From Reichenbachiella sp. 5M10 (GTDB taxonomy: Bacteria > Bacteroidota > Bacteroidia > Cytophagales > Cyclobacteriaceae), in NCBI RefSeq assembly GCF_002742335.1, contig NZ_MDGR01000007.1, forward strand, positions 1,368,501 through 1,432,500: DNA of 64,000 nucleotides, written 5' to 3'. Shown in pieces: positions 3,484 to 27,763 of this stretch; position 1 is the stretch's first letter, and each line of letters starts with the position of its first letter. The notes under the pieces were generated by a model that saw only the letters and a list, made by a program, of their open reading frames with translations, was not told the DNA's origin and searched no databases. The translations under genes and the position numbers were made by a program.

Positions 3484-4615
3484 ACTAAAAACACTTCTTG
3501 TTATTTTGTCTCTTGTCAACTACCTGACGGTAGATGCTCAGGAGGATAGTGGGCTCCAGTTAGGCATAGCACCTGTAGACGGAGGCCTGCAGATGGAGGA
3601 CTATTGGGTATGGGGCAGCTCGGTGGTCAAAGGCAAAGACGGCCAGTACCACATGTACGCCTCGCGATGGCCCAAGTTCCTGCCCTTTCACCCGGGGTGG
3701 ATGATCCGGTCGGAGATCGTACATGCCGTATCGGATACACCCGAGGGACCATACCGCTTCAGTGATGTAGCGCTAGGCTATCGTGGGGTGCAGTACTGGG
3801 ACGGCCGCTCCTGTCACAACCCCAAAATCGTCAAGCACGACGGCAAATACCTGCTCTACTACATGGGGTCGACCCATCCTTTTGAGGAGGTCACGCCAGA
3901 CAATGTGGCGGATTTCGACCTGCAGAGCAAATGGTGTATCGCTGGTCGCTGGCGCAAGCGGGTAGGCCTGGCGATAGCCGACAGCCCGTATGGCCCTTGG
4001 GAGCGGCTCGACGAACCCATTTTGGATGTGAAGCCAGATAGCTTTTATAGCTTCCTTACGTCCAACCCCTCCCCGCTCATCAAGGAGGACGGATCGGTCG
4101 TCCTGCTGTTCAAAGGTAGAAGCTACAGGGAGGACGAGCTCACTCACACCGATCAGTTCATTGGCGTGGCAACAGCCCCAACTTACGATGGGGAGTACAC
4201 TGTGGTGGGGGATGAGCCTGTTTTCTCTTCCGAGCAATTCGGAGAAGTGGAAGACCCACACCTGTGGCGCGACGATCAGGGCTTTCACATGATCGCCAAA
4301 GACATGACGGGCGACATCATCGGCACTGGTCATCATCATGGAGGCGTGCTCGCGCACTCCGAGGATGGGATCCATTGGGTGCTGGACGACAACCCATTGG
4401 CCTATACCCGCACAGTCACCTGGGACAATGGCCAGACCATCAAGCAAGGACAGCTCGAAAGACCTTTTGTCTTTGTAGAGGATGGCCAACCGACGCATAT
4501 TTTTTTCGCCACTATGGACGGGCCAGGTGGTTTTGGCAATGGGACGAAAACATGGAACATGGTGATCCCAGTAGTAAACAACAAGAAGGATTTGAAATCA
4601 AACAAGCAACGATGA
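3476..4615 (+). CDS. Five-bladed beta-propeller glycoside hydrolase, GH43/GH117-like
   Basis: 379 residues: a signal peptide ([22 protein letters not shown]) followed by repeated beta-propeller blade segments such as QYHMYASRWP, GKYLLYYMGS, GSVVLLFKGR, GFHMIAKDM and THIFFATMDG. EDPHLWRD near residue 260 is the acidic-residue plus Trp/Arg pattern seen in GH43-like (clan GH-F type) propellers. The likely role is periplasmic exo-hydrolysis of an oligosaccharide released from the target glycan. It overlaps the sulfatase by 8 bp and the next gene by 4 bp (ATGA), so it sits firmly within the operon. I recognise the fold and the hydrolase style, but not the exact family or substrate. Confidence 0.7.
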   Translation: MNRLKTLLVILSLVNYLTVDAQEDSGLQLGIAPVDGGLQMEDYWVWGSSVVKGKDGQYHMYASRWPKFLPFHPGWMIRSEIVHAVSDTPEGPYRFSDVALGYRGVQYWDGRSCHNPKIVKHDGKYLLYYMGSTHPFEEVTPDNVADFDLQSKWCIAGRWRKRVGLAIADSPYGPWERLDEPILDVKPDSFYSFLTSNPSPLIKEDGSVVLLFKGRSYREDELTHTDQFIGVATAPTYDGEYTVVGDEPVFSSEQFGEVEDPHLWRDDQGFHMIAKDMTGDIIGTGHHHGGVLAHSEDGIHWVLDDNPLAYTRTVTWDNGQTIKQGQLERPFVFVEDGQPTHIFFATMDGPGGFGNGTKTWNMVIPVVNNKKDLKSNKQR

Positions 4616-6000
4616 AACAGATATTTTGGGCACTGGCTGTGTGTATAGCACTCGCCTCGTGCCAGACCAAGGCAAAGCCAAGCGAAACCGACACGATACT
4701 TGTACACACGCTCGCTGAGTGGAAGCAGTATCTCGACAAAAGCCATGTCCGGGTCAAGCTTCAGCCCGGCAACTACCAGATCGACGAGGCGGACAATATC
4801 CGATTCATCAGGATCACAGGCGATGATGCCTATTTCGATCTCAGTGGGGTCAGATTCATGGTTGATACCAAGCTCTTTAGCCGTCCCGATCTGACCAAAA
4901 GTGACGATGGCAATAGTATGTACTGTGCCATAGAGGTGTCGGGCGATCGCGTCACCCTCGAAGGCTTGTACATCGAGACCTATGGCGATACACCGGGCCG
5001 ACAAAGCAAAAACAAGATGTTTAACATCGTGGGAGAGGGTGATGTGTTGAAAAATGTGGAGGTACGCACGACCGGTTCTAGTCCCTGGGGCTTTGGCTAC
5101 TTGTATGGCCTAGGAGGCGGTGATGTGCGTAAGATGAACGGCATCCGCGTGGGCTATCCCGCCAAGGATGTGAAACTGCTGGGCTGCAAAGTACACATGC
5201 GCGCCATGGGGCATGCGATCTTTTTGCAGGGAGCGGAAAACACGCTGATCGAAAACTGTCACGTGGATGGATTGCTCCGTACCACTGATGCCATCCTGGC
5301 GGAAACCTCAGGCTATGCTTTTGACCGAGATTTTTACGCCGGCAAAGGCGGCTATGTGGAGGGCACTATGATTCGCGAAGATGGCAAGATCATGCCAGGA
5401 GAGATCGTCTCCCTGAGCGAGGACGGCATACGCATGTACCCAGAATACAACGGCCACAAAACAAAAAACACAACCGTGAAGAACTGTACGGTCACCCAGA
5501 TGCGTCGCGGGATCTGCACGGGACTGAGCACGTCAGGCGACAAGGTGATCGACTGTATAGTGCGCGACTGTGTGGCCACTGGCTACAATGTAGGCAATGC
5601 CGATACTTTGATCAATTGTAGCGCGAATGCCAAGTATGCAGAGGCTTTTTGTGTGCCCTATACCAAGGCTAAAAATGCCTATGTAGAGATGAACATCCTC
5701 GACAGCCGTAACGGGATGGCCAACGATCTACTGGCCAAAATCAATGGAGAAGGCCACCACGTGATCGTGAAAACGGCCAACGAAGATTACATCCCCTCGT
5801 CGATGGCCATCAAGCTGGCTTCATGGCAAGGGTATGGCAACTTTAATAAAAAAGCCACGCCCCTTGCCACAGATGTTGTGCTCGATAATGAGACAAATTG
5901 CAAAGTCCTTTCTTATCCAGGTGTAAAGGATACCGAAATAAACAGTAAGGGTGAAATAATAAAAGAAGCGAAGCAAGATCAACGACTCATTATCAATTAG
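4612..6000 (+). CDS. Right-handed beta-helix lipoprotein, copy A (divergent)
   Basis: A 462-residue protein from the ATG at 4612, chosen because it overlaps the upstream stop and begins a lipoprotein signal ending LASC; the frame is open further upstream but without a signal. It starts with the LAEWKQYLD.SHVRVKLQPGNYQI segment shared by all five paralogues and continues as short repeats (TLIENC, VKLLGC, TTVKNC) typical of a parallel beta-helix. It keeps GHAIFLQ and the R-T-T-D motif. Where the other copies have PYGYG..FGKGG...H.K.S, it has SPWGFGYLYGLGGG, losing the conserved Lys and His. It may be an enzyme of changed specificity, or a binding protein. A polysaccharide lyase or hydrolase role is inferred only from fold and context. 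Confidence 0.75.
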   Translation: MKQIFWALAVCIALASCQTKAKPSETDTILVHTLAEWKQYLDKSHVRVKLQPGNYQIDEADNIRFIRITGDDAYFDLSGVRFMVDTKLFSRPDLTKSDDGNSMYCAIEVSGDRVTLEGLYIETYGDTPGRQSKNKMFNIVGEGDVLKNVEVRTTGSSPWGFGYLYGLGGGDVRKMNGIRVGYPAKDVKLLGCKVHMRAMGHAIFLQGAENTLIENCHVDGLLRTTDAILAETSGYAFDRDFYAGKGGYVEGTMIREDGKIMPGEIVSLSEDGIRMYPEYNGHKTKNTTVKNCTVTQMRRGICTGLSTSGDKVIDCIVRDCVATGYNVGNADTLINCSANAKYAEAFCVPYTKAKNAYVEMNILDSRNGMANDLLAKINGEGHHVIVKTANEDYIPSSMAIKLASWQGYGNFNKKATPLATDVVLDNETNCKVLSYPGVKDTEINSKGEIIKEAKQDQRLIIN

Positions 6001-6080
6001 TATATCGAGTACTGGTTCGGGGGAGTATGGACGTATCGTATCGAGAAAAATGGATCAATAGGAGATTAGATTTAACAAAG

Positions 6081-7496
6081 ATGAATGATAAAATGAAACT
6101 GTCTGTTTTCATGGTCAGCCTGGTGGTGAGCCTGAATGCGTTTGCCCAGACCACCGTCAATTCCCTTGAGGAGCTGATGCCTTATCTGACTCAGGATAGT
6201 GTGGAGGTAGTTCTCAAGCCGGGAGTCTACACCATTTCTGCCAAAGAGGTAAAGAAGGGCAAGTACAATGCACAAACGCAAATCAAGAACAACTCCAATG
6301 TTTTGTTGCTGTTTACTGGCAGCCATAGCGTGTATGATTTTACGGATGTGACCATTCAGGTCGAGACCGAGGTTTTCTCTTCTTTCCCGAATGGGGATGA
6401 ATTTTACGAGATGCAGATCATCGGCAATCACAACGTGCTGAAGAATTTGACCCTTATAGACAAAGGGTCTGTCCACGATGCGCCTACTCGGCGAGGTACT
6501 AACATCGTGATGGATGGGGCGAGCAATCGTGTCGAAGGTTTTCATATCACGACCAGAGGAGCCTATCCCTATGGCTATGGCGAGGCTTTTGGCAAAGGAG
6601 GGAAGAGTGTGATTCCGCACAGGAAGCATTCCTCTTTTCTCGTAAGAGGCTATAAAAACCACGCGAAAAACTGCACGATCATACACCGATCTTATGGTCA
6701 TGCGATCTTTATGCAGGCTGCCGATTGGCCGATCATCGAGGGCTGCTATGTAGAAGGTGCGATGCGCTCTACCGACGACATGTGGACAGAGAAGGGCACA
6801 GGATCTGATGCCGACAAAGTAGACTTCAAGACTGTGTGGGGCTATCCGCTGCCCAAAGGCTATATGCTGTGCTTGGGCGAAGAGGGGATTCGTGCGTACA
6901 ACGGTGGCGAGACCATCATCGACGGTGTGGAGTACCGCCGGGGGACCTCCAATCCTACCATCATCAACTGCACAGTCAAGAATATGCGCGCAGGGGTCAC
7001 ACTGACCCATGCGACGGGTCAGAAGTATGTATCTGGCACGACTGTGATAGGTTGTGAAAGAGGGTTTTGTATAGGGACGGGAGATATTGTGGACTGCTAT
7101 GCCGACACCCAGCATGGTCCGGCTTTGGGTGTGGATTATACAAGTGACCAGGGTATGACGGCAGACATCACTCTGTTGCCCTATGAAGGGGCGAGCAACA
7201 ACGGCAGTGGCCATGCAGCCATCATCATAGGTAGCAACCACAAAGTCACGCTGCGCAATGCTGTACCCGATCCTGACCAAAATCTCAAAATCAATATCGG
7301 AGGAGACAACCGCACCATCGGTATGCTAGGCAAAGATGAAAACTACTCCGCCTCCAATATCGTCCTGCACAATCTCTCTGGCTATCCTGTCGTACTCGAC
7401 GACAACAGTCGAAACTGTACGGGTGTCTCCGCAGGGGAGGTCATTGACGAAGGAGAGAATAATCATATTTTCAAAGAGAAGATTATAAAGAAGTGA
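6081..7496 (+). CDS. Secreted right-handed beta-helix protein, copy B
   Basis: A 471-residue protein. The start was placed at 6081 (or 6093), where a signal peptide begins (MKLSVFMVSLVVSLNAFAQ); the frame extends to 6027 without signal character. It has the family layout: an N-terminal VNSLEELMPYL...LKPGVYTI segment, a PYGYGEAFGKGGKSVIPHRKHS block, RSYGHAIFMQ, EGCYVEG and RSTDD. The rest consists of beta-helix coils such as CTIIHRS, PTIINCTVKNM and TTVIGCERGF. It has no accessory domain. It lies 80 bp after copy A and overlaps the GH78 region, so it belongs to the same operon. Conserved His, Lys, Arg and Asp clustered on the central coils suggest an active site for an anionic sugar. The function is unproven; the best guess is a polysaccharide lyase or glycoside hydrolase. 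Confidence 0.78.
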   Translation: MNDKMKLSVFMVSLVVSLNAFAQTTVNSLEELMPYLTQDSVEVVLKPGVYTISAKEVKKGKYNAQTQIKNNSNVLLLFTGSHSVYDFTDVTIQVETEVFSSFPNGDEFYEMQIIGNHNVLKNLTLIDKGSVHDAPTRRGTNIVMDGASNRVEGFHITTRGAYPYGYGEAFGKGGKSVIPHRKHSSFLVRGYKNHAKNCTIIHRSYGHAIFMQAADWPIIEGCYVEGAMRSTDDMWTEKGTGSDADKVDFKTVWGYPLPKGYMLCLGEEGIRAYNGGETIIDGVEYRRGTSNPTIINCTVKNMRAGVTLTHATGQKYVSGTTVIGCERGFCIGTGDIVDCYADTQHGPALGVDYTSDQGMTADITLLPYEGASNNGSGHAAIIIGSNHKVTLRNAVPDPDQNLKINIGGDNRTIGMLGKDENYSASNIVLHNLSGYPVVLDDNSRNCTGVSAGEVIDEGENNHIFKEKIIKK

Positions 7497-7507
7497 CAAT
7501 CCAAGCG

Positions 7508-9403: not shown

Positions 9404-9410
9404 CAGAATA

Positions 9411-11072
9411 ATGAAGAAGAAAACGAGCTGGCTGTATGTGATATGTTGTTTCGGAGTGATATTGTTTCTGGGATGTTCTAGTGAAGGGAAGAAAGAAACA
9501 AGAAGCCCATTGATACTGGATATGGTGCATCACAATCCAGGTGAACCTCCTTACGAAAGTGCTTATGTAGATCCGTCTGTGATCAAAGAAATGGGGTATA
9601 ATGGGAAAGTATATTTCCTGTTTGAATCTCCTACTTTGGCAATTAATTGGGAATCTCTGGATCCAGATATACTACCAAAAGGCACACCAGATCGAAAGTG
9701 GGTGGATGAAAAGGCTGGAATGATACACGCCATGCATGCAAAGTGCGAAGCACAGGGACTGTCGATCTATGCCATGTCTGATCTTATGCTTTTCCCCAAA
9801 CGGTTAATTGAAAAATATGGGATAGAAGAAGTTTTTGGTGACCCTAAAGACAGTATTACTCAGAAATTGCTTCGCATTCAGATTGATGAGATTTTTTCTC
9901 AATTTCCAAAGATGGATGGATTGGTGGTACGGATTGGAGAAACCTACCTGCATGATGCACCCTATCATCAAGGGCACATTCAAGACAAGAGCAATGCCCA
10001 AAAGACCATTATTCCTTTGATGCAGTTGTTGAGAGAGGAGGTTTGTGTCAAAAGAAATAAACAACTCATTTTTAGGTCATGGAGATCGTTTGACGTAGAT
10101 GCAGATACCTACATGGCCATAAGTGATGCGGTAACTCCACATCACAATTTGATCATGAGTGTCAAGCATTGTGAAGGGGATTTTCATCGTTCCACACCAT
10201 TTAGCAAAGTTATAGGTATGGGGCGACACCAGCAGATAATAGAGGTACAGTGCTCAAGAGAGTATGAGGGCAAGGGTGCTTATCCCAACTATATAGCCAA
10301 CGGTGTTATAGAAGGGTTTGAGGAGCATCGAGGTATGCCAAAGGAACAATTTAATTCCATACGCCAGTTTGCCCAAACTAAGCCAGAGATGTTTGCTGGG
10401 GTATTTACATGGTCGAGAGGTGGGGGCTGGGATGGCCCCTATATCAAAAACGAAATGTGGGCAGATGTGAATGCCTGGGTGATGGCGCAGTGGGCGCAAA
10501 AACCTGATCAGAAAGAGGAAGAAGTCTTTAGGCGGTATGCCGTTGATCGGCTAGGGTTGGAAGAATCAGAAGTTGCAAAATTTAGAAAAATGTGCCTTTT
10601 GTCTGCCGATGCTGTGGTTAGAGGTAGGAATTCGGTAGAGCATGATATGAATGAATGGTGGACAAGAGATCAAGGCATTGGTTTCCCCAAATCCAACCAA
10701 GATCCACAAAGGCAACAACGAAACCTAAATCAAAAAGATGAATCGTTGGAAATTTGGAAGGAAATTGTGGAACTGGCAAAGACTATAAATTGGCCCCATG
10801 ATGATATGCGGGAACATGCCATTGGCTCATCGCTGTATGGATTGCACCTTTATGAAATTTATCGAAGTGTGATTCATATCTCCGATGCTGAATCAAAAAA
10901 TGATAGGGATGCCTTAAAAAAATGGATAAACGAATATGACTTGGCATGGATCAAATATGGCAAGTTGTCGGATCAATATCCTTCGTTGGCCAGCTTGTAT
11001 TCCAAAGATTATGTTCGGCATATTAAAGATCCAGCAGACAAGAGGATCAATGAATTGAGGGGAGATATGTGA
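9411..11072 (+). CDS. Lipoprotein, possible TIM-barrel glycoside hydrolase (alpha-glucuronidase-like)
   Basis: 553 residues with a lipoprotein signal ending FLGC. Pieces such as NGKVYFLFES, GLSIYAMSDLMLFP, KMDGLVVRIGET, KQLIFRSWRSFD, QIIEVQCSREYEGKGAYPNY and FAGVFTWSRGGGWDG follow one another as beta-strand-loop units of a (beta/alpha)8 barrel. This resembles GH67/GH115-type glucuronidases or other clan-A-like barrels. Candidate catalytic carboxylates lie in RIGET and VQCSREYEG. The C-terminal ~180 residues are helical. It lies 7 bp after GH78, shares its AT-rich composition and is probably the last gene of the first operon. An alpha-glucuronidase would fit the uronate theme, but the family call is weak and the protein should be treated as unassigned. 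Confidence 0.45.
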   Translation: MKKKTSWLYVICCFGVILFLGCSSEGKKETRSPLILDMVHHNPGEPPYESAYVDPSVIKEMGYNGKVYFLFESPTLAINWESLDPDILPKGTPDRKWVDEKAGMIHAMHAKCEAQGLSIYAMSDLMLFPKRLIEKYGIEEVFGDPKDSITQKLLRIQIDEIFSQFPKMDGLVVRIGETYLHDAPYHQGHIQDKSNAQKTIIPLMQLLREEVCVKRNKQLIFRSWRSFDVDADTYMAISDAVTPHHNLIMSVKHCEGDFHRSTPFSKVIGMGRHQQIIEVQCSREYEGKGAYPNYIANGVIEGFEEHRGMPKEQFNSIRQFAQTKPEMFAGVFTWSRGGGWDGPYIKNEMWADVNAWVMAQWAQKPDQKEEEVFRRYAVDRLGLEESEVAKFRKMCLLSADAVVRGRNSVEHDMNEWWTRDQGIGFPKSNQDPQRQQRNLNQKDESLEIWKEIVELAKTINWPHDDMREHAIGSSLYGLHLYEIYRSVIHISDAESKNDRDALKKWINEYDLAWIKYGKLSDQYPSLASLYSKDYVRHIKDPADKRINELRGDM

Positions 11073-11402: not shown

Positions 11403-11474
11403 TGCATTCTTTCTGTGCTTATCAGAATATTTGAGATAAGCATATTATGAATTTTTAACTAAAACAAAAGAAGC

Positions 11475-14084
11475 ATGAAACGAAAGACTATTACTCATTC
11501 GCTGCACCACTGTGTGCAGGCCACAATGAAAGGACTGCTGGCACTGAGTGTGCTGGTGTTGGCCGTGACGACCGTCCAGGCGCAGACTACCGTCAGTTCA
11601 TTAAGTCAATTGATCCCCTATCTGGATGACGACAATGTCAACGTCAAACTCGCCCCTGGCACGTATAGTGTGACAGCCAATGATGTGAGTACTGGGGCTA
11701 TTGGCAAGTACTGGCAAGGCACGACTCACCTAGGCAATTCTTTCAATGTTTTCCTCTTTGAAGGAGACAACAGCACGTATGATTTTACAGGTGTCACGAT
11801 CAACATCGAAACCGAAACAGCACAGTCTGTAGGCAATGTGGATTTTCATGAGTTTCGTGTCATAGGTAGTGATAACGTAATACTGAACCTGACAGTAGTC
11901 GATGATGGTTCGGTGAATGATCAGCCTACCAAAAGAGCGACAAATGTAGTACTCGATGGTGCCAATAACCGATTGGAGGGATGTCATTTTACGGTGAGGG
12001 GTTCTTACCCATATGGCTATGGAGATATTTTTGGCAAGGGTGGAAGTAATGTCATTGCCCACAATAAGCGTAGCGCTTGTTTGATTAGAGGAAATTCCAA
12101 CCATGTGAAGAACTCTACTTTTATCTGTCGCTCGTATGGACACGGTATATTTTTTCAGGGAGCGAATGATCCGATCGTAGAAGGCTGCTATGTAGAAGGA
12201 GAATTGCGGTCTACCAATGAAGTATTGGCAGAGGAAGGTTCGGGAAGCCCTGCTGACAATGTCGACTTTCAAACGATATGGGGCTTTAATTTGAATGACA
12301 TCACTGGCAACTATTATTTCAGTTTGCAAGAAGACGGCATCCGATCTTACAATGCAGGGGAGACTGTCATAGATGGTGTGGAATACGACCGAGGGGTAAC
12401 TAACGCCACAGTACTGAACAGTACAGTAGTCAAGATGCGCTCAGGCGTGACGATCGGATGGGCATCAGGGACCAAATATGTAGAGAACTGCACGGTACTG
12501 GCATGCGAAACAGGCTATTGGGTAGGAGCCAACACCAATGTGGTGAATTGCGATGGTGACGCTTCTATCGGCGCGCTGCTATCAGAAGATGTCGCTAGAA
12601 GTAACTCCAACATTGAAATCACACTTTTGGACAATCATGTCACCCCATTGAGCGGTGAAGTAACAGCCATTTATTTTGCAGGTACAGATCATGAGGTCAC
12701 AATTCACGATGGGACCACTTCTACGATGAGCAATATCGATATTCTCATCGGTGGTCAGCGAAAAGCCCATCGGTTCATGACTGGCAATGGTTCTACCACC
12801 GAAGGTTACTATCACAACGCAAACAATATCACCTTTACCAACAATACCAACTATGCCATCGTGGTGGGAGACAAAGCCACGAATACCGATATCACTACTT
12901 GTGGCACGGTCACAGACAATGGTACAGGTACTTCGGTAAATTACCAAACTTGCACCAACGACAATATAGCACTTGGTAAAAGCACTTCGCAATCCTCTAC
13001 CGCGCATGGAGGGCTCTCTTCCCGAGCAGTAGATGGCAATACGAGTGGGGTATGGTCTCATGGCTCAGTCACGCATACCAACGCAGAATCGAACCCATGG
13101 TGGGAAGTAGACCTGCGAGGTACCTATGAGGTCGATGAGATTGTTTTGTACAATCGGACCAACTGCTGTATGGATCGGCTGAGCAACTTTACCGTCTCGG
13201 TGATGAATGGTAGCACGACTACCTGGAGTCAGACCTACAGTGCCTACCCTAATCCATCGCAGACCATCCAAGTAGGCGGGGCACAGGGCGAAACAGTGCG
13301 TGTACAACTCAACGGTTCTAGCAACCCATTGTCTTTGGCTGAGGTGCAGGTATATGGTACAGTCGCCTCTACTGTTGGTGGAGATTTTCAGTTGGTCAAA
13401 AGGAACGCAACGGGTTTTGCTATCGATGGCGGTGGCAACAGCGGTGCAGAGGGCCGGAGTGTAGAGTTGTACACTTATGTGCAGCACGATAACATGACCT
13501 GGACAGAAATCTCACGAGGAGGTGGGTATTATTCTTACCAAAAGTTGAATAGCACAGTTTGTATCGATGGCGGTAGCGGAGGGACCAATGGTCAGGATGT
13601 AACGCTCGAGACTTGCAATGCCAATGATTTCAACCAGCACTGGCTGAAAATAGACGCTGGCAATGGACATTACAGGCTAGAAAAACGCGGTACCAACTTC
13701 TCTCTTGATGGTGGAAATAATGGCGCAATAGACCAGAATGTATATCTATGGACATCAAGCACAACCAATCAAAATCAGCAGTGGAGGTTTGATGATGTCA
13801 GTGCTGGTGCAAGATTACGAGATGAGCCTCTGGATGAGTTGGCGTCTAGCGCATTCAGTTTTTATCCCAATCCAGTAAGTTCCAGACTGACGGTGCAATT
13901 GGGAGAAAGTAACTACCAACAATTCGTGATCTACAATGTCAACGGCATGGTGGTGAATCAAGGCAAGGTAGCGGATGATATGAGTAAGCTGACGATAGAC
14001 ATGGATCATCTTGATGCTGGTCTGTACGTACTCAAACTCAGCGGAAACAATGCCAGTAGAAGCATGAGAATCATAAAGGAGTAA
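11475..14084 (+). CDS. T9SS-secreted beta-helix protein, copy C, with F-type lectin and ricin-type domains
   Basis: 869 residues. Signal peptide to about 36 (VTTVQAQ). The beta-helix region, about 37-490, carries the family blocks PYGYGDIFGKGG...H.KRS, RSYGHGIFFQ, EGCYVEG and RSTNE. An F-type lectin (fucolectin, CBM47-like) domain spans about 497-628: His534, Arg561 and Arg568 have the spacing of the fucose-binding motif HX26RXDX4R, with Asn in place of the Asp, and Cys564-Cys565 form the vicinal cysteine pair known in eel fucolectin. A ricin-type beta-trefoil occupies about 637-775 (three repeats with DGG and QHW/QQW). The C-terminal FYPNPVSSRLTVQL...LYVLKL is a type IX sorting domain, so the protein is exported across the outer membrane. 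It should bind fucose and act on the target glycan; the catalytic activity is unknown. Confidence 0.8.
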   Translation: MKRKTITHSLHHCVQATMKGLLALSVLVLAVTTVQAQTTVSSLSQLIPYLDDDNVNVKLAPGTYSVTANDVSTGAIGKYWQGTTHLGNSFNVFLFEGDNSTYDFTGVTINIETETAQSVGNVDFHEFRVIGSDNVILNLTVVDDGSVNDQPTKRATNVVLDGANNRLEGCHFTVRGSYPYGYGDIFGKGGSNVIAHNKRSACLIRGNSNHVKNSTFICRSYGHGIFFQGANDPIVEGCYVEGELRSTNEVLAEEGSGSPADNVDFQTIWGFNLNDITGNYYFSLQEDGIRSYNAGETVIDGVEYDRGVTNATVLNSTVVKMRSGVTIGWASGTKYVENCTVLACETGYWVGANTNVVNCDGDASIGALLSEDVARSNSNIEITLLDNHVTPLSGEVTAIYFAGTDHEVTIHDGTTSTMSNIDILIGGQRKAHRFMTGNGSTTEGYYHNANNITFTNNTNYAIVVGDKATNTDITTCGTVTDNGTGTSVNYQTCTNDNIALGKSTSQSSTAHGGLSSRAVDGNTSGVWSHGSVTHTNAESNPWWEVDLRGTYEVDEIVLYNRTNCCMDRLSNFTVSVMNGSTTTWSQTYSAYPNPSQTIQVGGAQGETVRVQLNGSSNPLSLAEVQVYGTVASTVGGDFQLVKRNATGFAIDGGGNSGAEGRSVELYTYVQHDNMTWTEISRGGGYYSYQKLNSTVCIDGGSGGTNGQDVTLETCNANDFNQHWLKIDAGNGHYRLEKRGTNFSLDGGNNGAIDQNVYLWTSSTTNQNQQWRFDDVSAGARLRDEPLDELASSAFSFYPNPVSSRLTVQLGESNYQQFVIYNVNGMVVNQGKVADDMSKLTIDMDHLDAGLYVLKLSGNNASRSMRIIKE

Positions 14085-19696: not shown

Positions 19697-19939
19697 GAAA
19701 AGGGACCTAGCGTGTGTAGAGTTTAGAAAGAGCGATGGCCGAGTTTGTAGGGATGGTTCCTTTTTTTGATTGTAGACTCATAATTTATCACTTCTGAACC
19801 ATAGTTAATACCCCAAGCGTACGCAGATTCAGAGATTTGTTTTTAAGCCATTGCCTCTCGGTTTACGTGATATTCAAGACAGGGGTCTTTGCTCGTTTGG
19901 AGAGTGGAAGTGATGGAGAGATTAGAAGACAAATTACGA

Positions 19940-21757
19940 ATGATTAGAAGAGTAGCATACCTCGGAGTATTGTGGAGTGCATTGGCTTTGACGTGCCATG
20001 CGTCAAATAGCCAATCAAAAGAAAAACCAAATGTCATCCTCATTCTTGTGGATGACCAAGGCTATGGAGATATTGCCGCTTTGGGCAATCCCATCATCCA
20101 AACTCCCAACATAGATCAGCTGCACGCCACTAGTGTACGTTTTACCGATTATCATGTCAATCCGACCTGCGCACCGAGTCGTGCCGCACTCATGACGGGG
20201 CACAATGCCAACCGAGCGGGGGTCTGGCACACGGTCAATGGCCGCTCGATGATTTTGGAGAGAGAGACTACAGTTGCACAGATCATGCAAGACAATGGCT
20301 ATGCTACGGGGCTTTTTGGCAAGTGGCACCTAGGGGACAATTACCCTTTTCGTCCAGAGGACAAAGGTTTTGAAGAAGTGCTCACTCACGGTGGTGGGGG
20401 AATGGAGCAGACCATGGACTACTGGGACAATGACTACTTCAATGACACCTACATCCACAACGGAAAATTGGAAAAATACGAAGGCTATTGTACTGATATT
20501 TGGTTTGAGGAGGCTATGAAGTTTATGGCTGACAAGAAAGATGAGCCATTCTTTGTTTACCTACCTACCAATGCTGCACACTCGCCTTATTTCGTCGAGG
20601 ACAAATACCTAGAGCCTTACAAGCAGTACGAAGAAGACGGTACGATCCCTATGGCGGCTTTTTATGGCATGATTGCCAATGTAGATGAAAATATCGGCAA
20701 GCTGGTCGACTTCCTCAAGGCCAACGAGATCATGGACAATACCATTTTGATTTTCATGACTGACAATGGTACGGCTCAGGGAGCGCGGGTAGAGGGACAC
20801 CGCCTGGATGGCTTTGTCAACAAAGGCTTCAACGACGGTATGCGTGGCATCAAAGCCAGCAAGTACGAGGGCGGACACCGCGTGCCGCTGTTCATCCATT
20901 GGGCAGATGGTGGCATCACCACAGGCACAGACATCGATGCCCTCACTGCACACTATGATGTCTTGCCCACGATAGTGGATATGGCCGGACTCAAAGTGGA
21001 GAAAGGGCTGAAGTTTGACGGACAGAGTCTGCTGCCATTGATCAAGGGTAACAATAAGAAATTTGAAGACCGCATCGTGATCACCAACTCGCAGCGCATC
21101 GAGGTGCCAGAACCATGGCGCAGAACTTCGCTCATGCAAGGCAAATGGCGACTCATCGATGGCGTTGAGCTTTACAACCTAGAGACCGATCCCGAGCAAC
21201 GCAACAACATCGCCGATCAGCATCCTGAGAAAATGGCGGAGTTCAAAGCTTACTATGACAAATGGTGGGCAGAGATATCTCCCAGCTACGAGGATCAGCC
21301 CTATATCTACGTAGGACATGAGGCTGAGAATCCGACTAAACTATACTGCCACGACTGGCACACAGAAAAGGTGAGCCCCTGGCACCAGCGCCATATCCGA
21401 AGTGGCTATGTAGACAATGGTTATTGGCAAATCAAAGTTGCGGAGGCAGGTACCTACAAAATAAGACTGCGCAGGTGGCCAGTAGAGACCGGTATGATGC
21501 TCAATGCACCCTATCCAGTGCGTCCAGCTCTACCAGGTACCAGCGTCGACGAAAGCAAAAAAGGCAAAGCACTTACTATCCAAAAGGCGAGAATATTGGT
21601 TCAGGACAAGGACAGGAGTACGGCAGTAGATGGCTGTAGCGAATTCGTGGAGTTTACCGTGGAGCTGGAAGAAGGAGATAGCCAAATCCAAACATGGTTT
21701 ACACTGGAAGATGGAACCGAACTGGGAGCCTACTTTGTCGATGTGGAAAAGATTTAA
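19940..21757 (+). CDS. Secreted sulfatase, family S1, paralogue of the 1639 sulfatase
   Basis: 605 residues from the ATG at 19940, selected because the signal (MIRRVAYLGVLWSALALTCHA) begins there; the frame continues upstream to 19889 without signal character. Metal-binding LVDDQGYGD, formylglycine motif CAPSR (Cys77-Arg81), canonical [13 protein letters not shown] and TDNGTAQG are all present. The C-terminal ~110 residues repeat the LRRWP-containing domain of the sulfatase at 1639. It follows a terminator, so it should have its own promoter, and precedes beta-helix copy D by 87 bp containing a stem-loop. It should remove sulfate from a sugar; the position is unknown. The signal ends ALTCH, a poor lipobox, so it may be periplasmic rather than lipid-anchored. 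Confidence 0.92.
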   Translation: MIRRVAYLGVLWSALALTCHASNSQSKEKPNVILILVDDQGYGDIAALGNPIIQTPNIDQLHATSVRFTDYHVNPTCAPSRAALMTGHNANRAGVWHTVNGRSMILERETTVAQIMQDNGYATGLFGKWHLGDNYPFRPEDKGFEEVLTHGGGGMEQTMDYWDNDYFNDTYIHNGKLEKYEGYCTDIWFEEAMKFMADKKDEPFFVYLPTNAAHSPYFVEDKYLEPYKQYEEDGTIPMAAFYGMIANVDENIGKLVDFLKANEIMDNTILIFMTDNGTAQGARVEGHRLDGFVNKGFNDGMRGIKASKYEGGHRVPLFIHWADGGITTGTDIDALTAHYDVLPTIVDMAGLKVEKGLKFDGQSLLPLIKGNNKKFEDRIVITNSQRIEVPEPWRRTSLMQGKWRLIDGVELYNLETDPEQRNNIADQHPEKMAEFKAYYDKWWAEISPSYEDQPYIYVGHEAENPTKLYCHDWHTEKVSPWHQRHIRSGYVDNGYWQIKVAEAGTYKIRLRRWPVETGMMLNAPYPVRPALPGTSVDESKKGKALTIQKARILVQDKDRSTAVDGCSEFVEFTVELEEGDSQIQTWFTLEDGTELGAYFVDVEKI

Positions 21758-21766
21758 GTGAGCGCA

Positions 21767-21805: not shown

Positions 21806-21844
21806 GAGTATGAAAGACGATTTAATTACTAAATAAAATAAGCT

Positions 21845-24800
21845 ATGAGAATGAAATTTTACCAGAGTATCAATAGAATGAGCAATGGACTGGTGGGTTT
21901 GTTTTGCTTGGTTTTGGTACTACTGACCACTACAGTGACACAGGCTCAGGTAGAGGTAGAGTCTCTGGCAGAGTTCATACCATACACCAAGGAGAGCAAT
22001 GTAGATGTGAAGCTAGCACCGGGTACATACACAATCACCGCTGCGGATGTGGTCAATGATTTGTACGAAGAGCAAACGGCAATCGGCGCTACCAATAAGG
22101 TGCTGCTACTTTTCGAAGGCAACAACAGTACCTATGACTTTACAGATGTGACTATCAAGATCGAGACGGCTGTCCTCAGTGCTTATGGCAGTAATAGTGT
22201 CAACGAGCTACAGATTGTTGGCAATCATAATGTGCTCAAAAACCTGACGATGGTAGATGACGGATCTGTACACGACAATCCTGGTAGATCAGCCTGCAAC
22301 ATCGTGATGGACGGATTAGGCAATCTGATCGAGGGGTTTCATATGACCATCAAGGGTTCTTTTCCTTACGGCTATGGTGATGCTTTTGGCAAAGGTGCTG
22401 GTCCTGTGATTGGTCACCAAAAGCACAGTGCACTCTTGATCAGAGGCGAATCCAACCGAATCAAAGACTGTACTTTGATCCATCATTCTTACGGCCATGC
22501 GATTTTTATGCAGGCCGCCAGCAACCCGATCATCGAGGGCTGCTATGTAGAGGGAGAAGTACGTACCACTGATGATATGCTCCTCGAAGAGGGGACAGGA
22601 TCCCCAGCCGACAATGTAGACTTCATGACCGTATGGGGCTACCGTTTGCCAGCCGGCTACATGCTCAGTCTGGCAGAAGCAGGTATCAGAGCCTACAATG
22701 CAGGTACGACTGTGATAGATGGCGATATTATTGAGAGAGGAACTTCCAATCCTGTCGTGAGAAACTGTACGGTCAAAAACATGAGGACAGGCGTGACCAT
22801 CGCTCATGCTACAGGGACCAAATTCGTAGAAAACTGTACTGCTATTGGTTGTGAAAATGGCTTTTCACTCGCGTCGGGTGACGTGATCAATTGTAGAGCA
22901 GACGCGATTTATGGCCCTGTATATGCTTCTACCTACGAAAATGATAAAAGTTTCAATGCGGATATTACCGTGATGCCTCCTAGCGATGACTATTACAATG
23001 GGTCAGGCTCAGTCGCCTATATTGGCGGTAGCGAACATCAACTGATCTTGCGTGGCGATCTGGATGACTACCCTGATGGCATGTCGATCAAAGTCGGCGG
23101 AGACAAAAATAATATCCGCTTGCTCTATGGCAATCTGCCTCACCAAAACGATTTTGTGGCTAACAACATTGACATCCAAAACCTCACAGGTTTTCCTATC
23201 AATCTATCCGACAAGAGCTCCAATGTCACAGGTCAATCCTGTGGAGAGATCAACGATTTGGGTACAGACAATACCATCGCTCAAGTGCCTTGCGACGAGA
23301 TTTGCGTCGAATTGGAGAGTTTTGATCTGCCTACTGAGACCAAAGACGGGGTGGGTTACAAGCTCTATTCGGGAGAGCATGACGAGATGCCTGATTTTGC
23401 GGCTATCTCAGCGACTCACGTAGGACAGATGGCCGACCTCAGTATCAGTGCCGCGGATAGTTTGAGCCAGTTTGCCTTGGTTTTAGAAGGTTTTTTGGAA
23501 GCGCCATCGGATGATAGCTATACTTTTTACATCAAGTCGGACGACCATGCCATACTCAAGATCGACGGCCAAGTGGTGATCAACCATGAAGGATCGTCGC
23601 TCCAGGAGGTAAGTGCCAAAGTTTGTCTGCAAGCGGGTAGTCACCTGATGCAAATCCAATACTTGGAGAAAAACGCAGACAAGACCTTTGAAGTGTACTA
23701 CGAGAGCAGTACCATCGACAAGACGGATGCATTGGCCCTCAAGGTATTAGATGAAAGTCAAAGCCCCAATTTGGCCTTCAAACGCTCAGCGAGTCAGTCT
23801 TCTACCGGCTATCAGGGAATCGCTAGTCGTGCCGTAGATGGTAGCACAGACGGTGTCTTTCTGAACAACTCGGTGACCCATAGCATCGCGAATACCTACT
23901 ACCCCTGGTGGCAAGTAGATTTAGGCAGTACCCGAACCGTTGGAGAAATCAAGATATATAACCGAACAGACAGCAACGCCGATAGGCTAGCCAATTTTGT
24001 CGTTCAGGTATTGACACGGTCAGGTGAACTGCGTTTTAGCCAGTACATAGAGTCATTGTCTGAGGCCTCATTGATAGTAGATGCTCAGGGGGCTGAGGGA
24101 GATATCGTACGTGTCCAAATCCAAGGTGTTGGGACACTGGCTTTGGCAGAAGTGGAAGTTTACGAAGGAGCCGCTTCTTCATTCGGTGCTATTCAGATGA
24201 TCAAACGAAGCGCGACGCTCTATGCGATCGACGGAGGTGAGGATTCAGAAGAAGACCATGAGATAACCTTGCTGAGACACAGCAATCATATCAATCTGAC
24301 TTGGAAGGAAATAGACAGAGGCAATGGGTACTACAGCTATCAGCAATATGATACTGATCTATGCCTCTATGGCGGGGAAGAAAATGTAGTAGATCAGCAT
24401 GTGACTTTGGTCAAATGCGCGATGGAGGATGCCAATCAGCAATGGATGAAAATAGGAGGGGGCAATGATCATTTTCGATTGCTCAAGCGAGGCAGTGAAC
24501 TGGTGATCGATGGAGGAATGGGAAGGTTTGATGGAGCCAATGTGTTTCTTGGTGAATTGGACGAGACCAGCGAAGATCAGCAGTGGAAGTTTGAAGCTGC
24601 AGATATTGACAACCTAGAGAGCAATGAAGAAGTACTCGCTATCATCGAGGAACTGCCTGAAATTGTTGCTTACCCCAATCCTGTGGCTGGCGAACTCAAA
24701 CTGGCTGTGCCAACGGCAAAATATAATCGAGTGGCGATTTACAACATGGACGGTCGAGTAGTTGCTAAGCGAGCGATCACAGCAGGTACCGACTCATTCA

Positions 24801-24892
24801 GTCTGAACTTCGAACAATACGATGCGGGCATATATGTATTGGTGTTTACGGGCCAACAGAGTATAAAACAGGTCAAAATTATCAAACAATAA
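21845..24892 (+). CDS. T9SS-secreted beta-helix protein, copy D, with PA14, F-type lectin and ricin-type domains
   Basis: 1015 residues, the longest of the five paralogues. Signal to about 35 (TTVTQAQ). Beta-helix about 36-490 with PYGYGDAFGKG...HQKHS, HSYGHAIFMQ, EGCYVEG and RTTDD. PA14 domain about 500-630 (SYTFYIKSDDHAILKIDG). F-type lectin about 642-775: His679, Arg707, Asp709 and Arg714 keep the fucose-binding motif, with one extra residue between His and Arg compared with copy C and no vicinal Cys pair. A ricin-type trefoil at about 780-918 has weaker QxW repeats. A type IX sorting domain (AYPNPVAGELKLAV) ends it. It is encoded between two sulfatases. The architecture fits a surface enzyme anchored to a fucosylated, sulfated glycan; the reaction is unknown. 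Confidence 0.8.
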   Translation: MRMKFYQSINRMSNGLVGLFCLVLVLLTTTVTQAQVEVESLAEFIPYTKESNVDVKLAPGTYTITAADVVNDLYEEQTAIGATNKVLLLFEGNNSTYDFTDVTIKIETAVLSAYGSNSVNELQIVGNHNVLKNLTMVDDGSVHDNPGRSACNIVMDGLGNLIEGFHMTIKGSFPYGYGDAFGKGAGPVIGHQKHSALLIRGESNRIKDCTLIHHSYGHAIFMQAASNPIIEGCYVEGEVRTTDDMLLEEGTGSPADNVDFMTVWGYRLPAGYMLSLAEAGIRAYNAGTTVIDGDIIERGTSNPVVRNCTVKNMRTGVTIAHATGTKFVENCTAIGCENGFSLASGDVINCRADAIYGPVYASTYENDKSFNADITVMPPSDDYYNGSGSVAYIGGSEHQLILRGDLDDYPDGMSIKVGGDKNNIRLLYGNLPHQNDFVANNIDIQNLTGFPINLSDKSSNVTGQSCGEINDLGTDNTIAQVPCDEICVELESFDLPTETKDGVGYKLYSGEHDEMPDFAAISATHVGQMADLSISAADSLSQFALVLEGFLEAPSDDSYTFYIKSDDHAILKIDGQVVINHEGSSLQEVSAKVCLQAGSHLMQIQYLEKNADKTFEVYYESSTIDKTDALALKVLDESQSPNLAFKRSASQSSTGYQGIASRAVDGSTDGVFLNNSVTHSIANTYYPWWQVDLGSTRTVGEIKIYNRTDSNADRLANFVVQVLTRSGELRFSQYIESLSEASLIVDAQGAEGDIVRVQIQGVGTLALAEVEVYEGAASSFGAIQMIKRSATLYAIDGGEDSEEDHEITLLRHSNHINLTWKEIDRGNGYYSYQQYDTDLCLYGGEENVVDQHVTLVKCAMEDANQQWMKIGGGNDHFRLLKRGSELVIDGGMGRFDGANVFLGELDETSEDQQWKFEAADIDNLESNEEVLAIIEELPEIVAYPNPVAGELKLAVPTAKYNRVAIYNMDGRVVAKRAITAGTDSFSLNFEQYDAGIYVLVFTGQQSIKQVKIIKQ

Positions 24893-24966
24893 GTCTTATG
24901 TAATGGCCAACGCCTTACTACTTTATCGGTCAGTAGGAACGTTGATGTTTTTAATAGCAATCGAAT

Positions 24967-26415
24967 ATGAAGAGCGTTTTTCTTGCTTACATCTTACTGC
25001 AGTTGGTTTCTGGCGTCAGTCATGCCACTGAAAGTCGATCAAGACCCAACGTCATTGTGATTTTTATCGATGACGAAGGCTATGGCGATGTGGGGTGTTT
25101 TGGTGCGACCGGGTTTGAAACGCCCCATATCGACCAGCTAGCCAGTGAAGGCATGCGGTTTACACATTTCTATGCCGCTCAAGCAGTCTGCAGTGCATCG
25201 CGTGCTGGGCTGATGACAGGGGCTTATCCCAATCGCGTGGGGATCACCGGGGCACTGTTTCCTTACGACCAGGTAGGACTCAACGACGCGGAGTACACCA
25301 TGGCAGAGATGTTTCAGGATCAGGGCTATGCCACGGCTTGTATCGGCAAGTGGCACCTAGGCTGGCAAAAAGAATTCCTCCCTCTCCAGCATGGGTTTGA
25401 CGAGTTTTTCGGTCTACCCTATTCCAACGATATGTGGCCTCACGATGACCTGACTGGCGAGAAAGTGCCCGAGGGTCACAAGAGAGCCCAATACCCTGAG
25501 TTGCCCTTGATCGAGGGCAATGAGCCGATAGGATACATCAGCAGTCTGCAAGATCAAGACCAGCTCACCCGACGCTACACTGCAAAAGCTGTTGACTTCA
25601 TCGATAGGCAGGCTGAGGAGCCTTTCTTCCTCTACCTCGCACACAGTATGGCACATATCCCTTTGGGCGTGTCTGAGCACTTTCGTGGCAAAAGCGAGCT
25701 AGGATTGTATGGCGATGTGATGATGGAAGTGGATTGGTCTGTGGGTGAGATCGTCAGGGCTTTGGAGGCCAATGAGCTTACTGACAATACGCTCATCGTT
25801 TTCACTACTGACAATGGTCCCTGGACTTGGTTTGGCAATCATGGCGGTTCGGCAGGTGGACTGAGAGAGGGCAAACTGACCAGCTGGGAGGGAGGACAAC
25901 GGGTGCCTTTCGTCCTCAAGTGGCCTGGTCAGGTGCCCCAAGGCAGCGTCTGCAACCAACTCGCGTGTGCGGTGGATTTGCTGCCCACATTTGCAGCCAT
26001 TGCAGATGGGGAACTTTCTGACAACAAAATCGATGGACTCGACATTGGCGGACTTTTCGTAGATCCTCAATCGAAGAGTCCAAGAGAGACTATCCTGTAC
26101 TACGGAGGAAAAAATCACTTGAATGCAGTACGAATGGGCAGCTGGAAACTGGTGCTCCCTCACAGCTATCCCGCCTTGGTGAGCCCGGGCAAAGATGGAG
26201 CGAAAGGAAAGATACAAAAGGCAGTGATCAACGAGCCGGAACTGTACAATCTGGCCAGTGATCCTGGAGAAAACTACAATCTGATTGGGTCTTATCCCGA
26301 AAAGGCCGCCCAAATCATGACCGTAGTAGAGCAGGCGCGATCCGAATTGGGTGATCTCAATGTGGGATTGGAAAAGGGAAGTGAGAACAGAACAATAGGA
26401 AAGCTAAAAGAATAA
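24967..26415 (+). CDS. Secreted sulfatase, family S1, CSASR-type
   Basis: 482 residues with a type I signal peptide (MKSVFLAYILLQLVSGVSHA). Metal ligands in FIDDEGYGD. The formylglycine motif is CSASR (Cys75-Arg79), the accepted C-x-A-x-R variant. IGKWHLG and TTDNGPW follow, then the Lys-containing LREGKLTSWEGG segment of arylsulfatase A-like enzymes. It lacks the C-terminal LRRWP domain of the sulfatases at 1639 and 19940 and is a different subfamily. It lies 4 bp before beta-helix copy E and is almost certainly co-transcribed with it. It removes a sulfate ester from the glycan in the periplasm; the position is undetermined. Confidence 0.92.
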   Translation: MKSVFLAYILLQLVSGVSHATESRSRPNVIVIFIDDEGYGDVGCFGATGFETPHIDQLASEGMRFTHFYAAQAVCSASRAGLMTGAYPNRVGITGALFPYDQVGLNDAEYTMAEMFQDQGYATACIGKWHLGWQKEFLPLQHGFDEFFGLPYSNDMWPHDDLTGEKVPEGHKRAQYPELPLIEGNEPIGYISSLQDQDQLTRRYTAKAVDFIDRQAEEPFFLYLAHSMAHIPLGVSEHFRGKSELGLYGDVMMEVDWSVGEIVRALEANELTDNTLIVFTTDNGPWTWFGNHGGSAGGLREGKLTSWEGGQRVPFVLKWPGQVPQGSVCNQLACAVDLLPTFAAIADGELSDNKIDGLDIGGLFVDPQSKSPRETILYYGGKNHLNAVRMGSWKLVLPHSYPALVSPGKDGAKGKIQKAVINEPELYNLASDPGENYNLIGSYPEKAAQIMTVVEQARSELGDLNVGLEKGSENRTIGKLKE

Positions 26416-26419
26416 AACA

Positions 26420-27763
26420 TTGAATAAACTAATATTGGGTGTACTGGTACTTGTATCCTCGGTGCTGCATGCTGCTGAGATCGAGATCAATTCTGTGGCA
26501 GAGCTAATGCACTACGCTGCGCAAAGTGACAATGAGATCCGCATGGAGCCCGGCGTATATCCATTGACAGACTACCTGTCGATGGACTCGATGCGGGTGC
26601 GTCACCACCGCCAGCAGTTCCAGTACATCACCTTCACAGGCAGCAACAATGTCTTTGACTTGACGGGTGTCGAGATCGTGGTAGATACGGAGCTACGGAC
26701 GGCGCTTCGACCACCTATCCATAGCGATGAGTTCCTGGTCACAGGCAGCGACAACACGATCAAAGGCCTGACCATCCGATGCGTGGGAGATGGTACCTCA
26801 CCTGGTGGCACAGTCTTGCAGGTGGCAGGTACGGCCAATGTACTGGAGGATATCACGCTGTATGTCAAAGGTTCGTATCCCTATGGCTATGGCGATTTGT
26901 TTGGCAAGGGAGGACCAACGGTGATCCGACACAAAAAGCACAGTGGTCTGTTGATCACTGGTAGCAATACCAAGGTTTATCGTTCCAAAATCTACAACCG
27001 CTCTTTTGGTCACTGCTTTTTCGTGCAAAAGAAGGCCGAAAACGTTTATTTCGAAGACTGCTATGCTGAGGGCGAGGTGCGCTCTACCGACGACATCCTG
27101 GCAGAGACGTCAGGGCCAGCGGTGGAGGTGGACTTCAGAACCTGGACTCAAAATCGGGAAGGAGAGTATGTCGTCACCTCGGGATACATGAAGTCGCTCT
27201 GCGAAGATGGCTTTCGCACTTATGGCCAGATCAAAAACATCCATTTCAAAAATTGCACAGCTAAAAACACACGAGCGGGTTTCGAACTGCGCACCAACGA
27301 AGGCATACGGCTGGAAAACTGTACTACCATCGGTACCGAGCGTGCCTACTGGGTAGGCGATGGTGCGGTGGTCAAACACTGCCGGGGAGATGCCAACTAT
27401 GGGCCATTGATGTTTGTCGAAGGCAGCGGAGTAGACGTGGAGCTGATCGTAGACCCTGCCGAATCGGATCGTATGGTGCATTCGCTGGTCACGATCCAGG
27501 GAGACCACAACAAGGTGAAACTCATGGCTGAAAAAGGAAAAGAAAGAAAAAAGCAGCTGCCGATTTTGGTAGGCTATACCCACCCCGAGCATGGCGAATC
27601 TATGTCGCCCTATAGCGAGGGAGAAACCTCGGAGCTGACATTGATCAACCAAACAGGCATGCCGATCAAAATAGGCTCGATGGTGAGCAACAGCAAGATC
27701 GTGACCAATGGTGAGGTGCTGGAAAACAAAGGACAAAATATCAAAATAGTAAACAAGCGATGA
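26420..27763 (+). CDS. Secreted right-handed beta-helix protein, copy E (TTG start)
   Basis: 447 residues beginning at TTG; no in-frame ATG lies between the upstream stop and the signal peptide (NKLILGVLVLVSSVLHAAE), so TTG is the only start that keeps the signal. It has the family blocks INSVAELMHYA...MEPGVYPL, PYGYGDLFGKGG...HKKHS, RSFGHCFFVQ, EDCYAEG and RSTDD. It is a single-domain form without lectin or sorting domain, so probably periplasmic. It sits 4 bp after a sulfatase and overlaps the esterase start region. It is as divergent from copies B-D as copy A is, but keeps the putative active-site Lys and His. The enzymatic role is inferred, not shown. Confidence 0.77.
   Translation: MNKLILGVLVLVSSVLHAAEIEINSVAELMHYAAQSDNEIRMEPGVYPLTDYLSMDSMRVRHHRQQFQYITFTGSNNVFDLTGVEIVVDTELRTALRPPIHSDEFLVTGSDNTIKGLTIRCVGDGTSPGGTVLQVAGTANVLEDITLYVKGSYPYGYGDLFGKGGPTVIRHKKHSGLLITGSNTKVYRSKIYNRSFGHCFFVQKKAENVYFEDCYAEGEVRSTDDILAETSGPAVEVDFRTWTQNREGEYVVTSGYMKSLCEDGFRTYGQIKNIHFKNCTAKNTRAGFELRTNEGIRLENCTTIGTERAYWVGDGAVVKHCRGDANYGPLMFVEGSGVDVELIVDPAESDRMVHSLVTIQGDHNKVKLMAEKGKERKKQLPILVGYTHPEHGESMSPYSEGETSELTLINQTGMPIKIGSMVSNSKIVTNGEVLENKGQNIKIVNKR

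What the first reader, a model, noticed from the sequence alone, without database searches (positions are those of the whole stretch)
4612..27763. Five paralogous right-handed beta-helix proteins distributed through one sulfated-glycan locus
Copies at 4612, 6081, 11475, 21845 and 26420 share an N-terminal SL.EL.PYL...L.PG.Y segment and a central set of blocks: PYGYG..FGKGG...H.K.S (copies B-E), [ST].GH..F.Q, C[YH].[DE]G, and R[ST]T[DN]. I do not recognise this as an established CAZy family. Five diverged copies in one locus, three of them directly adjacent to a sulfatase gene, suggest that each handles a different sulfation or branching pattern, much as sulfatase paralogues do. This is the best candidate here for an undescribed enzyme family (lyase or hydrolase).
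Basis: partly seen in the sequence, partly recalled or inferred. Interest (0 to 1): 0.75.

Follow-up and report, generated by a model that had tools for sequence, protein, structure and literature searches.

The report
Seaweed-fucoidan lyase family, one odd branch
The five related proteins belong to an already known enzyme family that cuts fucoidan, a sulfated sugar of brown seaweed; the new part is that one of the five belongs to a conserved branch that lacks the amino acid proposed to start the cutting reaction, so the proposed mechanism may not hold unchanged for the whole family.

Summary
The five genes are real and homologous, but the family is not undescribed. All five match the crystallised fucoidan lyase FdlA of Flavobacterium sp. 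SA-0082 (7XZ7-7XZF) by sequence: E = 4.8e-33 (A), 5.6e-149 (B), 6.5e-122 (C), 4e-180 (D), 8.2e-52 (E). The copy A model matches FdlA before any other fold. The genome, a close relative of Reichenbachiella agariperforans, holds seven copies on one contig, two upstream of the window. Copies B-E keep FdlA's essential residues (B has Glu for Asp137).

Copy A does not: the published candidate base Lys141 is Leu and Asp137 is Tyr. In 136 family rows Lys141 is absent from 26, always together with Asp137; a single loss is rejected, with long-branch caveats (AU p = 0.0007). The A branch (23 rows) keeps His176, Glu236, Arg240, Tyr242 and Arg272. Lys151, invariant in 136 of 136, was not among the 11 residues mutated in the 2022 paper. 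Verdict: a known family with a conserved variant branch that makes a catalytic question testable. Reaction and substrate of copy A are inferred, not shown.

The parts
4612..6000 (+). Copy A: FdlA-family domain with lipoprotein-type signal (MKQIFWALAVCIALASC); lacks Lys141 (Leu167) and Asp137 (Tyr163); keeps Lys174, His201, Phe204, Glu270, Arg274, Tyr276, Arg298 (FdlA 151, 176, 179, 236, 240, 242, 272)
6027..7496 (+). Copy B: FdlA-family protein, no C-terminal tail (translation perhaps from Met at 6081, before a signal-peptide-like stretch, by eye); Asp137 is Glu, other essential residues present
11475..14084 (+). Copy C: FdlA-family domain + F5/8-type C + ricin-B-like + T9SS sorting tail; all essential residues present
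21845..24892 (+). Copy D: nearest of the five to FdlA (phmmer 4e-180); + PA14 + F5/8-type C + weak ricin-B-like + T9SS tail; all essential residues present
26420..27763 (+). Copy E: FdlA-family protein, no C-terminal tail; essential residues present; Gly243/Arg279 type
5098..5112 (+). Codons of copy A Tyr163-Leu167, the place of FdlA Asp137-Lys141
5131..5133 (+). Codon of copy A Lys174 = FdlA Lys151, invariant in 136 of 136 rows
5..1642 (+). GH95 (a fucosidase-containing family), 5' end outside the window
1639..3483 (+). Sulfatase
3476..4615 (+). GH43-like, below Pfam cut-off
19889..21757 (+). Sulfatase, directly before copy D
24967..26415 (+). Sulfatase, between copies D and E
33354..34991 (+). 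Sulfatase
39250..40620 (+). GH29 alpha-L-fucosidase
48528..49760 (-). GH88-type (PF07470) protein; such enzymes remove unsaturated uronic acid, the expected next step after a lyase (general knowledge)

Best explanation
The five genes (seven in the genome) encode members of the FdlA fucoidan-lyase family inside a polysaccharide utilisation locus for sulfated, glucuronic-acid-containing fucans of brown algae. As proposed for FdlA, the chain lies in a groove that ends in a basic pocket, and the Man-alpha-1,4-GlcA bond is broken by metal-free beta-elimination, leaving a 4,5-unsaturated uronic acid. Sulfatases, GH29/GH95 fucosidases and a GH88-type enzyme would then take the products apart. Copies C and D carry T9SS tails and binding modules, the upstream copy at contig 1346509 carries the same kinds of modules; B, E and the other upstream copy are bare domains, perhaps periplasmic; copy A looks like a lipoprotein. 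The copies belong to separate subfamilies. Copy A belongs to a conserved branch without Lys141 and Asp137. I think it is still an active uronan lyase, with a changed +1 subsite and with proton abstraction by another residue (Tyr242, His176 or the invariant Lys151), on a differently decorated chain. Shown here: homology, fold match, residue pattern, tree, neighbourhood. Inferred: the reaction of every copy, where each acts in the cell, the substrate differences, and the base in copy A.
For: phmmer of all five against FdlA chains. Copy A model (pLDDT 93.1): the top 11 Foldseek hits are all FdlA chains, TM 0.77-0.82, E <= 2.4e-23; the next hit drops to 6.7e-06. Of covered rows: His176 135/135, Glu236 134/135, Arg240 134/135, Tyr242 134/134, Arg272 134/134, Lys151 136/136. 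Lys141 110/136; all 26 rows without it also lack Asp137. Published mutants D137A, K141A, H176A, F179A, E236A, R240A, Y242A and Y242F are nearly inactive. In 3 of 27 genomes searched an A-type gene is the only family member found. Neighbours: sulfatases, GH95, GH29, GH88-type.
Against: No activity data for any copy. In FdlA, K141A and D137A each abolish activity, so copy A could be inactive. A 2018 study saw FdlA and FdlB depolymerise several fucoidans without absorbance at 232 nm and suggested cleavage of alpha-1,4-fucosyl bonds, so the family's reaction is disputed. R272A has little effect in FdlA although Arg272 is invariant, so invariance alone does not show a catalytic role, for Lys151 either. 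No coordinates were available here to place Lys151 in the groove.
Confidence: 0.78

Rival explanations
1. Copy A and its branch are dead lyases that act as glycan-binding lipoproteins at the cell surface, passing chains to transporters or to the other lyases.
For: Two residues essential in FdlA are replaced in all 23 A-type rows; inactive FdlA mutants still bind substrate; lipoprotein-like signals in 14 of 23 by a loose motif scan, of which L024 is doubtful.
Against: His176, Glu236, Arg240, Tyr242 and Arg272 are kept in 23 of 23 A-type rows, which a mere binder would hardly need. In 3 of 27 genomes the A-type is the only family member found (one isolate, two MAGs, so absence of others is not certain).
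Confidence: 0.25
2. The family, or some of its copies, are hydrolases of alpha-1,4-fucosyl bonds rather than uronan lyases.
For: PMC6267234 passages: FdlA/FdlB degrade fucoidans said to lack a Man-GlcA backbone and give no 232 nm signal. Beta-helix hydrolases such as GH110 are distant fold matches of copy A.
Against: PMC9410043 reports trisaccharide products and proposes a Tyr acid and a metal-free elimination that leaves a 4,5-unsaturated sugar. A GH88-type gene lies in the locus.
Confidence: 0.12
3. The copies are near-redundant recent duplicates with one shared substrate.
For: They share the fold and most of the active site.
Against: A, B, D and E each have nearer relatives in other genera than any other copy of this genome; only C has a near copy at home (70%, contig 1346509). 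D's exact grouping is weakly supported. Pocket residues, domains and export signals differ.
Confidence: 0.1
4. An undescribed lyase or hydrolase family.
For: No family-specific Pfam or NCBIfam model covers the helix domain; the 2022 paper says FdlA had no CAZy family then.
Against: All five match crystallised FdlA.
Confidence: 0.03

Closest known systems
Fucoidan lyase FdlA (and FdlB), Flavobacterium sp. SA-0082; PDB 7XZ7-7XZF; PMC9410043
   Same: Sequence match over most of the helix domain for all five; His176, Phe179, Glu236, Arg240, Tyr242 present in all five; C and D also have F5/8-type C domain and T9SS tail, as the paper describes for FdlA.
   Different: Copy A lacks Lys141 and Asp137 and has a lipoprotein-like signal and no tail; B has Asp137Glu; residues 243/279/322 differ by copy (only D reads as FdlA); C and D carry ricin-B-like and (D) PA14 domains.
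PL6 alginate lyase / chondroitinase B and PL31 alginate lyase (right-handed beta-helix lyases)
   Same: Same general fold class and reaction type.
   Different: Foldseek E 2e-5 to 6e-4 with TM <= 0.48 for copy A among the 50 rows shown; no phmmer hit; the FdlA paper reports metal-independent catalysis and non-conserved catalytic residues.
GH110 / GH28 / GH87 beta-helix hydrolases
   Same: Beta-helix fold, distant Foldseek matches.
   Different: 7-12% identity over poor superpositions; shared catalytic pattern not tested.

Membership tests
FdlA fucoidan lyase family (copies B, C, D, E) | Sequence homology over the helix domain | tested here: met
FdlA fucoidan lyase family (copies B, C, D, E) | Seven residues essential in FdlA (D137, K141, H176, F179, E236, R240, Y242) | tested here: met
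   all seven in C, D, E; six in B, with Glu for Asp137
FdlA fucoidan lyase family (copy A) | Sequence homology and fold | tested here: met
   4.8e-33; TM 0.77-0.82
FdlA fucoidan lyase family (copy A) | Published candidate base Lys141 and essential Asp137 | tested here: not met
   Leu167 and Tyr163; so copy A is called a homologue and variant, not an FdlA-type lyase
FdlA fucoidan lyase family (copy A) | His176, Phe179, Glu236, Arg240, Tyr242 | tested here: met
FdlA fucoidan lyase family (all) | Beta-elimination on sulfated fucoglucuronomannan giving unsaturated trisaccharides | not testable with these tools
   needs purified enzyme and substrate
FdlA fucoidan lyase family (all) | Deep basic pocket beside the groove | not testable with these tools
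   no coordinates given; residues 279 and 322 vary, Arg272 invariant
Polysaccharide utilisation locus | SusD-type gene with sulfatases, GHs and lyases beside it on one strand | tested here: met
   the SusC partner was not looked for

The most novel reading that the evidence does not exclude
The published FdlA mechanism names the wrong universal base. Lys141, coupled with Asp137, is a subfamily feature of the +1 subsite that was lost more than once, and the family-wide elimination machinery is Lys151-His176-Glu236-Arg240-Tyr242-Arg272. Lys151, not mutated in the 2022 study, or Tyr242 alone takes the C5 proton. The A-type branch is then a second, unrecognised class of active fucan lyase with another substrate.
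Probability: 0.3. Interest if true: 0.55.

Novelty: new variant of a known kind. Interest (0 to 1): 0.38.

Why it matters
Fucoidan lyases are few, and the two papers seen here disagree on FdlA's reaction; its catalytic base is a proposal from docking and mutants. A natural branch, conserved across many genera, that lacks the proposed base but keeps the rest of the active site is a ready-made test of that mechanism and points to one untested lysine. Subfamilies with different pocket residues give a set of enzymes that could be matched to sulfation or branching patterns of brown-algal fucans, which degrade slowly.

Tried and rejected
Undescribed family: rejected by FdlA matches. PL6/PL31/GH28/GH110 membership: rejected, only distant fold matches. 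A single loss of Lys141: rejected by AU test (p = 0.0007 for all 16 rows lacking Lys141 in a 63-row tree; p = 0.036 with the long row L031|4701 left out). Against this: in the 134-row tree starred branches do not force more than one origin, in the 63-row tree they force two, the other rows lacking Lys141 sit on long branches that join other long branches, and the groups were named after the first tree was seen. Finding a CAZy number: 'PL49' with 'fucoidan' gave 0 papers, a search with 'PL43' gave no paper holding that term; I give no number. Prior description of an A-type branch or of Lys151: none seen in the listings, nor in a term search of the main text of PMC9410043 for Lys151 (0 hits). 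The library lacks most subscription papers; of PMC9410043 I saw outline, abstract, passages and part 2 of 3 of the Results, of PMC6267234 passages only, of all other papers the listing only. Placing Lys151 in 3D: not possible, coordinates are not given; only the strand strings were used. Extra N-terminal domains of two A-type proteins: no Pfam hit.

Limits of the sample: one search kept 80 of 143 confirmed stretches (72 loci), confirmed with copy A as query, and its first seed pattern covers FdlA positions 132-140, so A-type rows are over-represented and position 137 is biased; 141 and 151 lie outside the patterns. Two rows were dropped as overlaps and five loci that repeat window copies were not counted; two partial rows are in the residue counts (the single non-Arg at 240 is in one of them) but not in the tree. 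One search covered 27 genomes from 30 loci given (72 held); L019 and L022 were not held; some matches are fragments (G410, G412, G413). The phylum search scored at most 4 candidates per genome. Not every ORF of the window was scanned against Pfam (34-39 kb and 61-64 kb mostly not).
Full report
Observation. The five ORFs exist at the stated places on the + strand and align over their whole helix domain (48 invariant columns in five rows). The general Pfam Beta_helix model matches A, D and E above its cut-off and B weakly (17.3 against 25.9 bits); for C no row of that model was listed at E <= 1. No family-specific Pfam or NCBIfam model was found for the domain. Corrections: only B has the N-terminal motif to the letter, D has FGKGA, A has AMGH, and only D and E of the five touch a sulfatase gene.

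Identity. phmmer against the PDB sequences settles the family. All five hit only one group with significance, the nine FdlA entries 7XZ7-7XZF: copy A 4.8e-33, B 5.6e-149, C 6.5e-122, D 4e-180, E 8.2e-52. FdlA is the endo-lyase of Flavobacterium sp. SA-0082 described in PMC9410043 (outline, abstract, passages and part 2 of 3 of the Results seen). According to that paper it cuts the alpha-1,4 bond between mannose and glucuronic acid in sulfated fucoglucuronomannan, needs no metal, and has a groove ending in a basic pocket. D137A, K141A, H176A, F179A, E236A, R240A, Y242A and Y242F are nearly inactive; H279A keeps about 65%; N243A, R272A and Y322A are little affected. The authors infer Tyr242 as acid and Lys141 as base from structures and docking, and say FdlA had no CAZy family. 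A second paper, PMC6267234 (passages), reports that FdlA and FdlB also break down other fucoidans without a 232 nm signal, so the reaction is not agreed.

Genome and locus. The window lies in G000, contig C7, 1368501-1432500. Copy A is 97% identical to a protein of Reichenbachiella agariperforans, and the genes around it are mostly 95-99% identical there. The genome has seven family members, all on this contig: the five, and two upstream at 1346509-1347933 and 1362891-1364267. Upstream of the window lie SusD, GH31, GH116, GH28-like, GH43+CBM35, GH39 and sulfatases. In the window are GH95, at least four sulfatases, a GH78-like protein, an alginate-lyase-like protein with CBM6 and PA14, BD-FAE, two heparinase-like proteins, GH29, GH141-like, GH30 and GH97, and a GH88-type gene on the other strand at 48528-49760.

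How common. Of 395 genomes drawn evenly from the phylum (own included) only the own genome has a full match; one other has a 67-position match at 1.9e-4. In 27 genomes reached through loci known to hold the family, the number of matches is 1 to 13, with 14 of 27 at five or more (a few fragments included). So several copies per genome is ordinary among those that have the family. Organisms named include Bacteroidota of several classes, Verrucomicrobiota, Planctomycetes, Hydrogenedentota and a WS1 bin.

Separate subfamilies. In a tree of 134 rows and a 63-row tree with a mixture model, A, B, D and E each have nearer relatives in other genera than any other copy of this genome; C pairs with its own upstream copy (70%). 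A, B and E sit in well supported groups; D's exact place among FdlA-like rows is weakly supported. The window set is therefore mostly one member from each of several old subfamilies, not a burst of local duplication. At FdlA positions 243/279/322 the copies read P/L/Y (A), N/H/H (B), N/W/I (C), N/H/Y (D, as FdlA), G/R/Y (E) and G/K/H (upstream copy at 1362891), while the catalytic positions other than 137 and 141 stay fixed. Architecture differs too: C and D end in a T9SS tail; the copy at 1346509 has PA14, F5/8 and ricin-type modules (its last residues lay outside the stretch scanned); copy A begins with a lipoprotein-like signal, as do many of its orthologues by a loose motif scan (14 of 23; L024 is doubtful).

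The odd branch. In 136 rows (FdlA plus 135 domains) Lys141 is Lys in 110 and Leu or Ile in 26. Position 137 is Asp, Glu or His in all 110 and Tyr or Ser in all 26. The 26 are the copy A branch (23 rows, support 100 on a long branch) and three others. Holding all rows without Lys141 together is rejected (p-AU 0.0007, 16 such rows in the 63-row tree; without the long row L031|4701 p = 0.036). Long branches make the number of losses uncertain, and starred branches of the 134-row tree alone do not force more than one. The A branch keeps His176, Glu236, Arg240, Tyr242 and Arg272 in 23 of 23; family-wide each of these misses in at most one row. One further charged residue is invariant in 136 of 136: Lys151, ten residues past Lys141. 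It is not among the 11 residues that PMC9410043 mutated. Invariance is no proof of a catalytic role: Arg272 is also invariant and R272A is active. In both AlphaFold2 models (A: pLDDT 93.1; D: 94.1) Lys151's place directly precedes a strand, 25 (D) or 27 (A) residues before His176's place, about one helix coil, which would set it beside His176; that is inference from strand positions, not from coordinates.

What copy A may do. Foldseek puts copy A's model next to FdlA (top 11 chains, E <= 2.4e-23, TM 0.77-0.82), with GH110 and PL6 far behind. In three genomes (loci L012, L024, L026; one isolate and two MAGs) an A-type gene is the only family member found, so it probably need not serve another FdlA-type protein. 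In 21 A-type loci outside Reichenbachiella (within 8 kb either side) the commonest neighbour clusters, family members apart, are GH31 (12 loci), GH39 (9), GH28-like (9), GH43+CBM35 (6), a sulfatase cluster (6) and GH116 (5) (names from one representative per cluster). I take copy A as a lyase for a differently decorated, possibly xylose-bearing glucuronic fucan, with a base other than Lys141; the xylose idea rests only on these GH families, some of whose members act on xylosides (recalled). The dead-lyase reading stays open.

Verdict. An ordinary answer to the question asked (known family, FdlA), with one useful new point: a conserved variant branch, and an untested invariant lysine, that together make the family's catalytic mechanism directly testable.

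Noticed in passing
G000:C7:1346509-1347933 and 1362891-1364267 (L004, L007; upstream of the window): Two more FdlA-family copies in the same locus; the first is a 70% paralogue of copy C with PA14, F5/8 and ricin-type modules, the second belongs to a separate subfamily with relatives in Flavobacteriia.
   Followed up: yes
window 28657-30585 and 30596-33328: Two proteins with no Pfam hit at 1e-3 but phmmer matches to solved heparinase-like chains (8R75, 4e-31) and to Uly1040 (9VTK, 2.2e-34); relatives recur near FdlA-family genes in other genera.
   Followed up: partly
window 9411-11072: Protein with only a sub-threshold GH67-middle-domain match and no PDB sequence match at 0.01; relatives lie near FdlA-family genes in L013, L050 and L055. 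Possibly an undescribed glycosidase.
   Followed up: partly
window 14132-15640: Polysacc_lyase-type domain (PF14099, just under cut-off) with ricin-B-like domain and T9SS tail; its C-terminal half resembles that of copy C just upstream.
   Followed up: no
L031:4701-7808, L013:14519-16573, L020:12629-14698: Three long FdlA-family proteins with Ser137/Ile141, apparently one or two further losses of the Asp-Lys pair.
   Followed up: partly
L030:7992-10001, L040:3540-5555, L031:7902-9932, L031:277-1701, L021:5724-7787: A subfamily with His at 137 and Lys141 kept, a further natural variant at the essential Asp.
   Followed up: no
L026:7443-9317 and L029:7461-9305: A-type proteins with roughly 130-150 extra residues between signal and helix domain; no Pfam hit.
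   Followed up: partly
window 40652-43048: GH141-like beta-helix protein with a sub-threshold PDZ match at its C-terminus.
   Followed up: no
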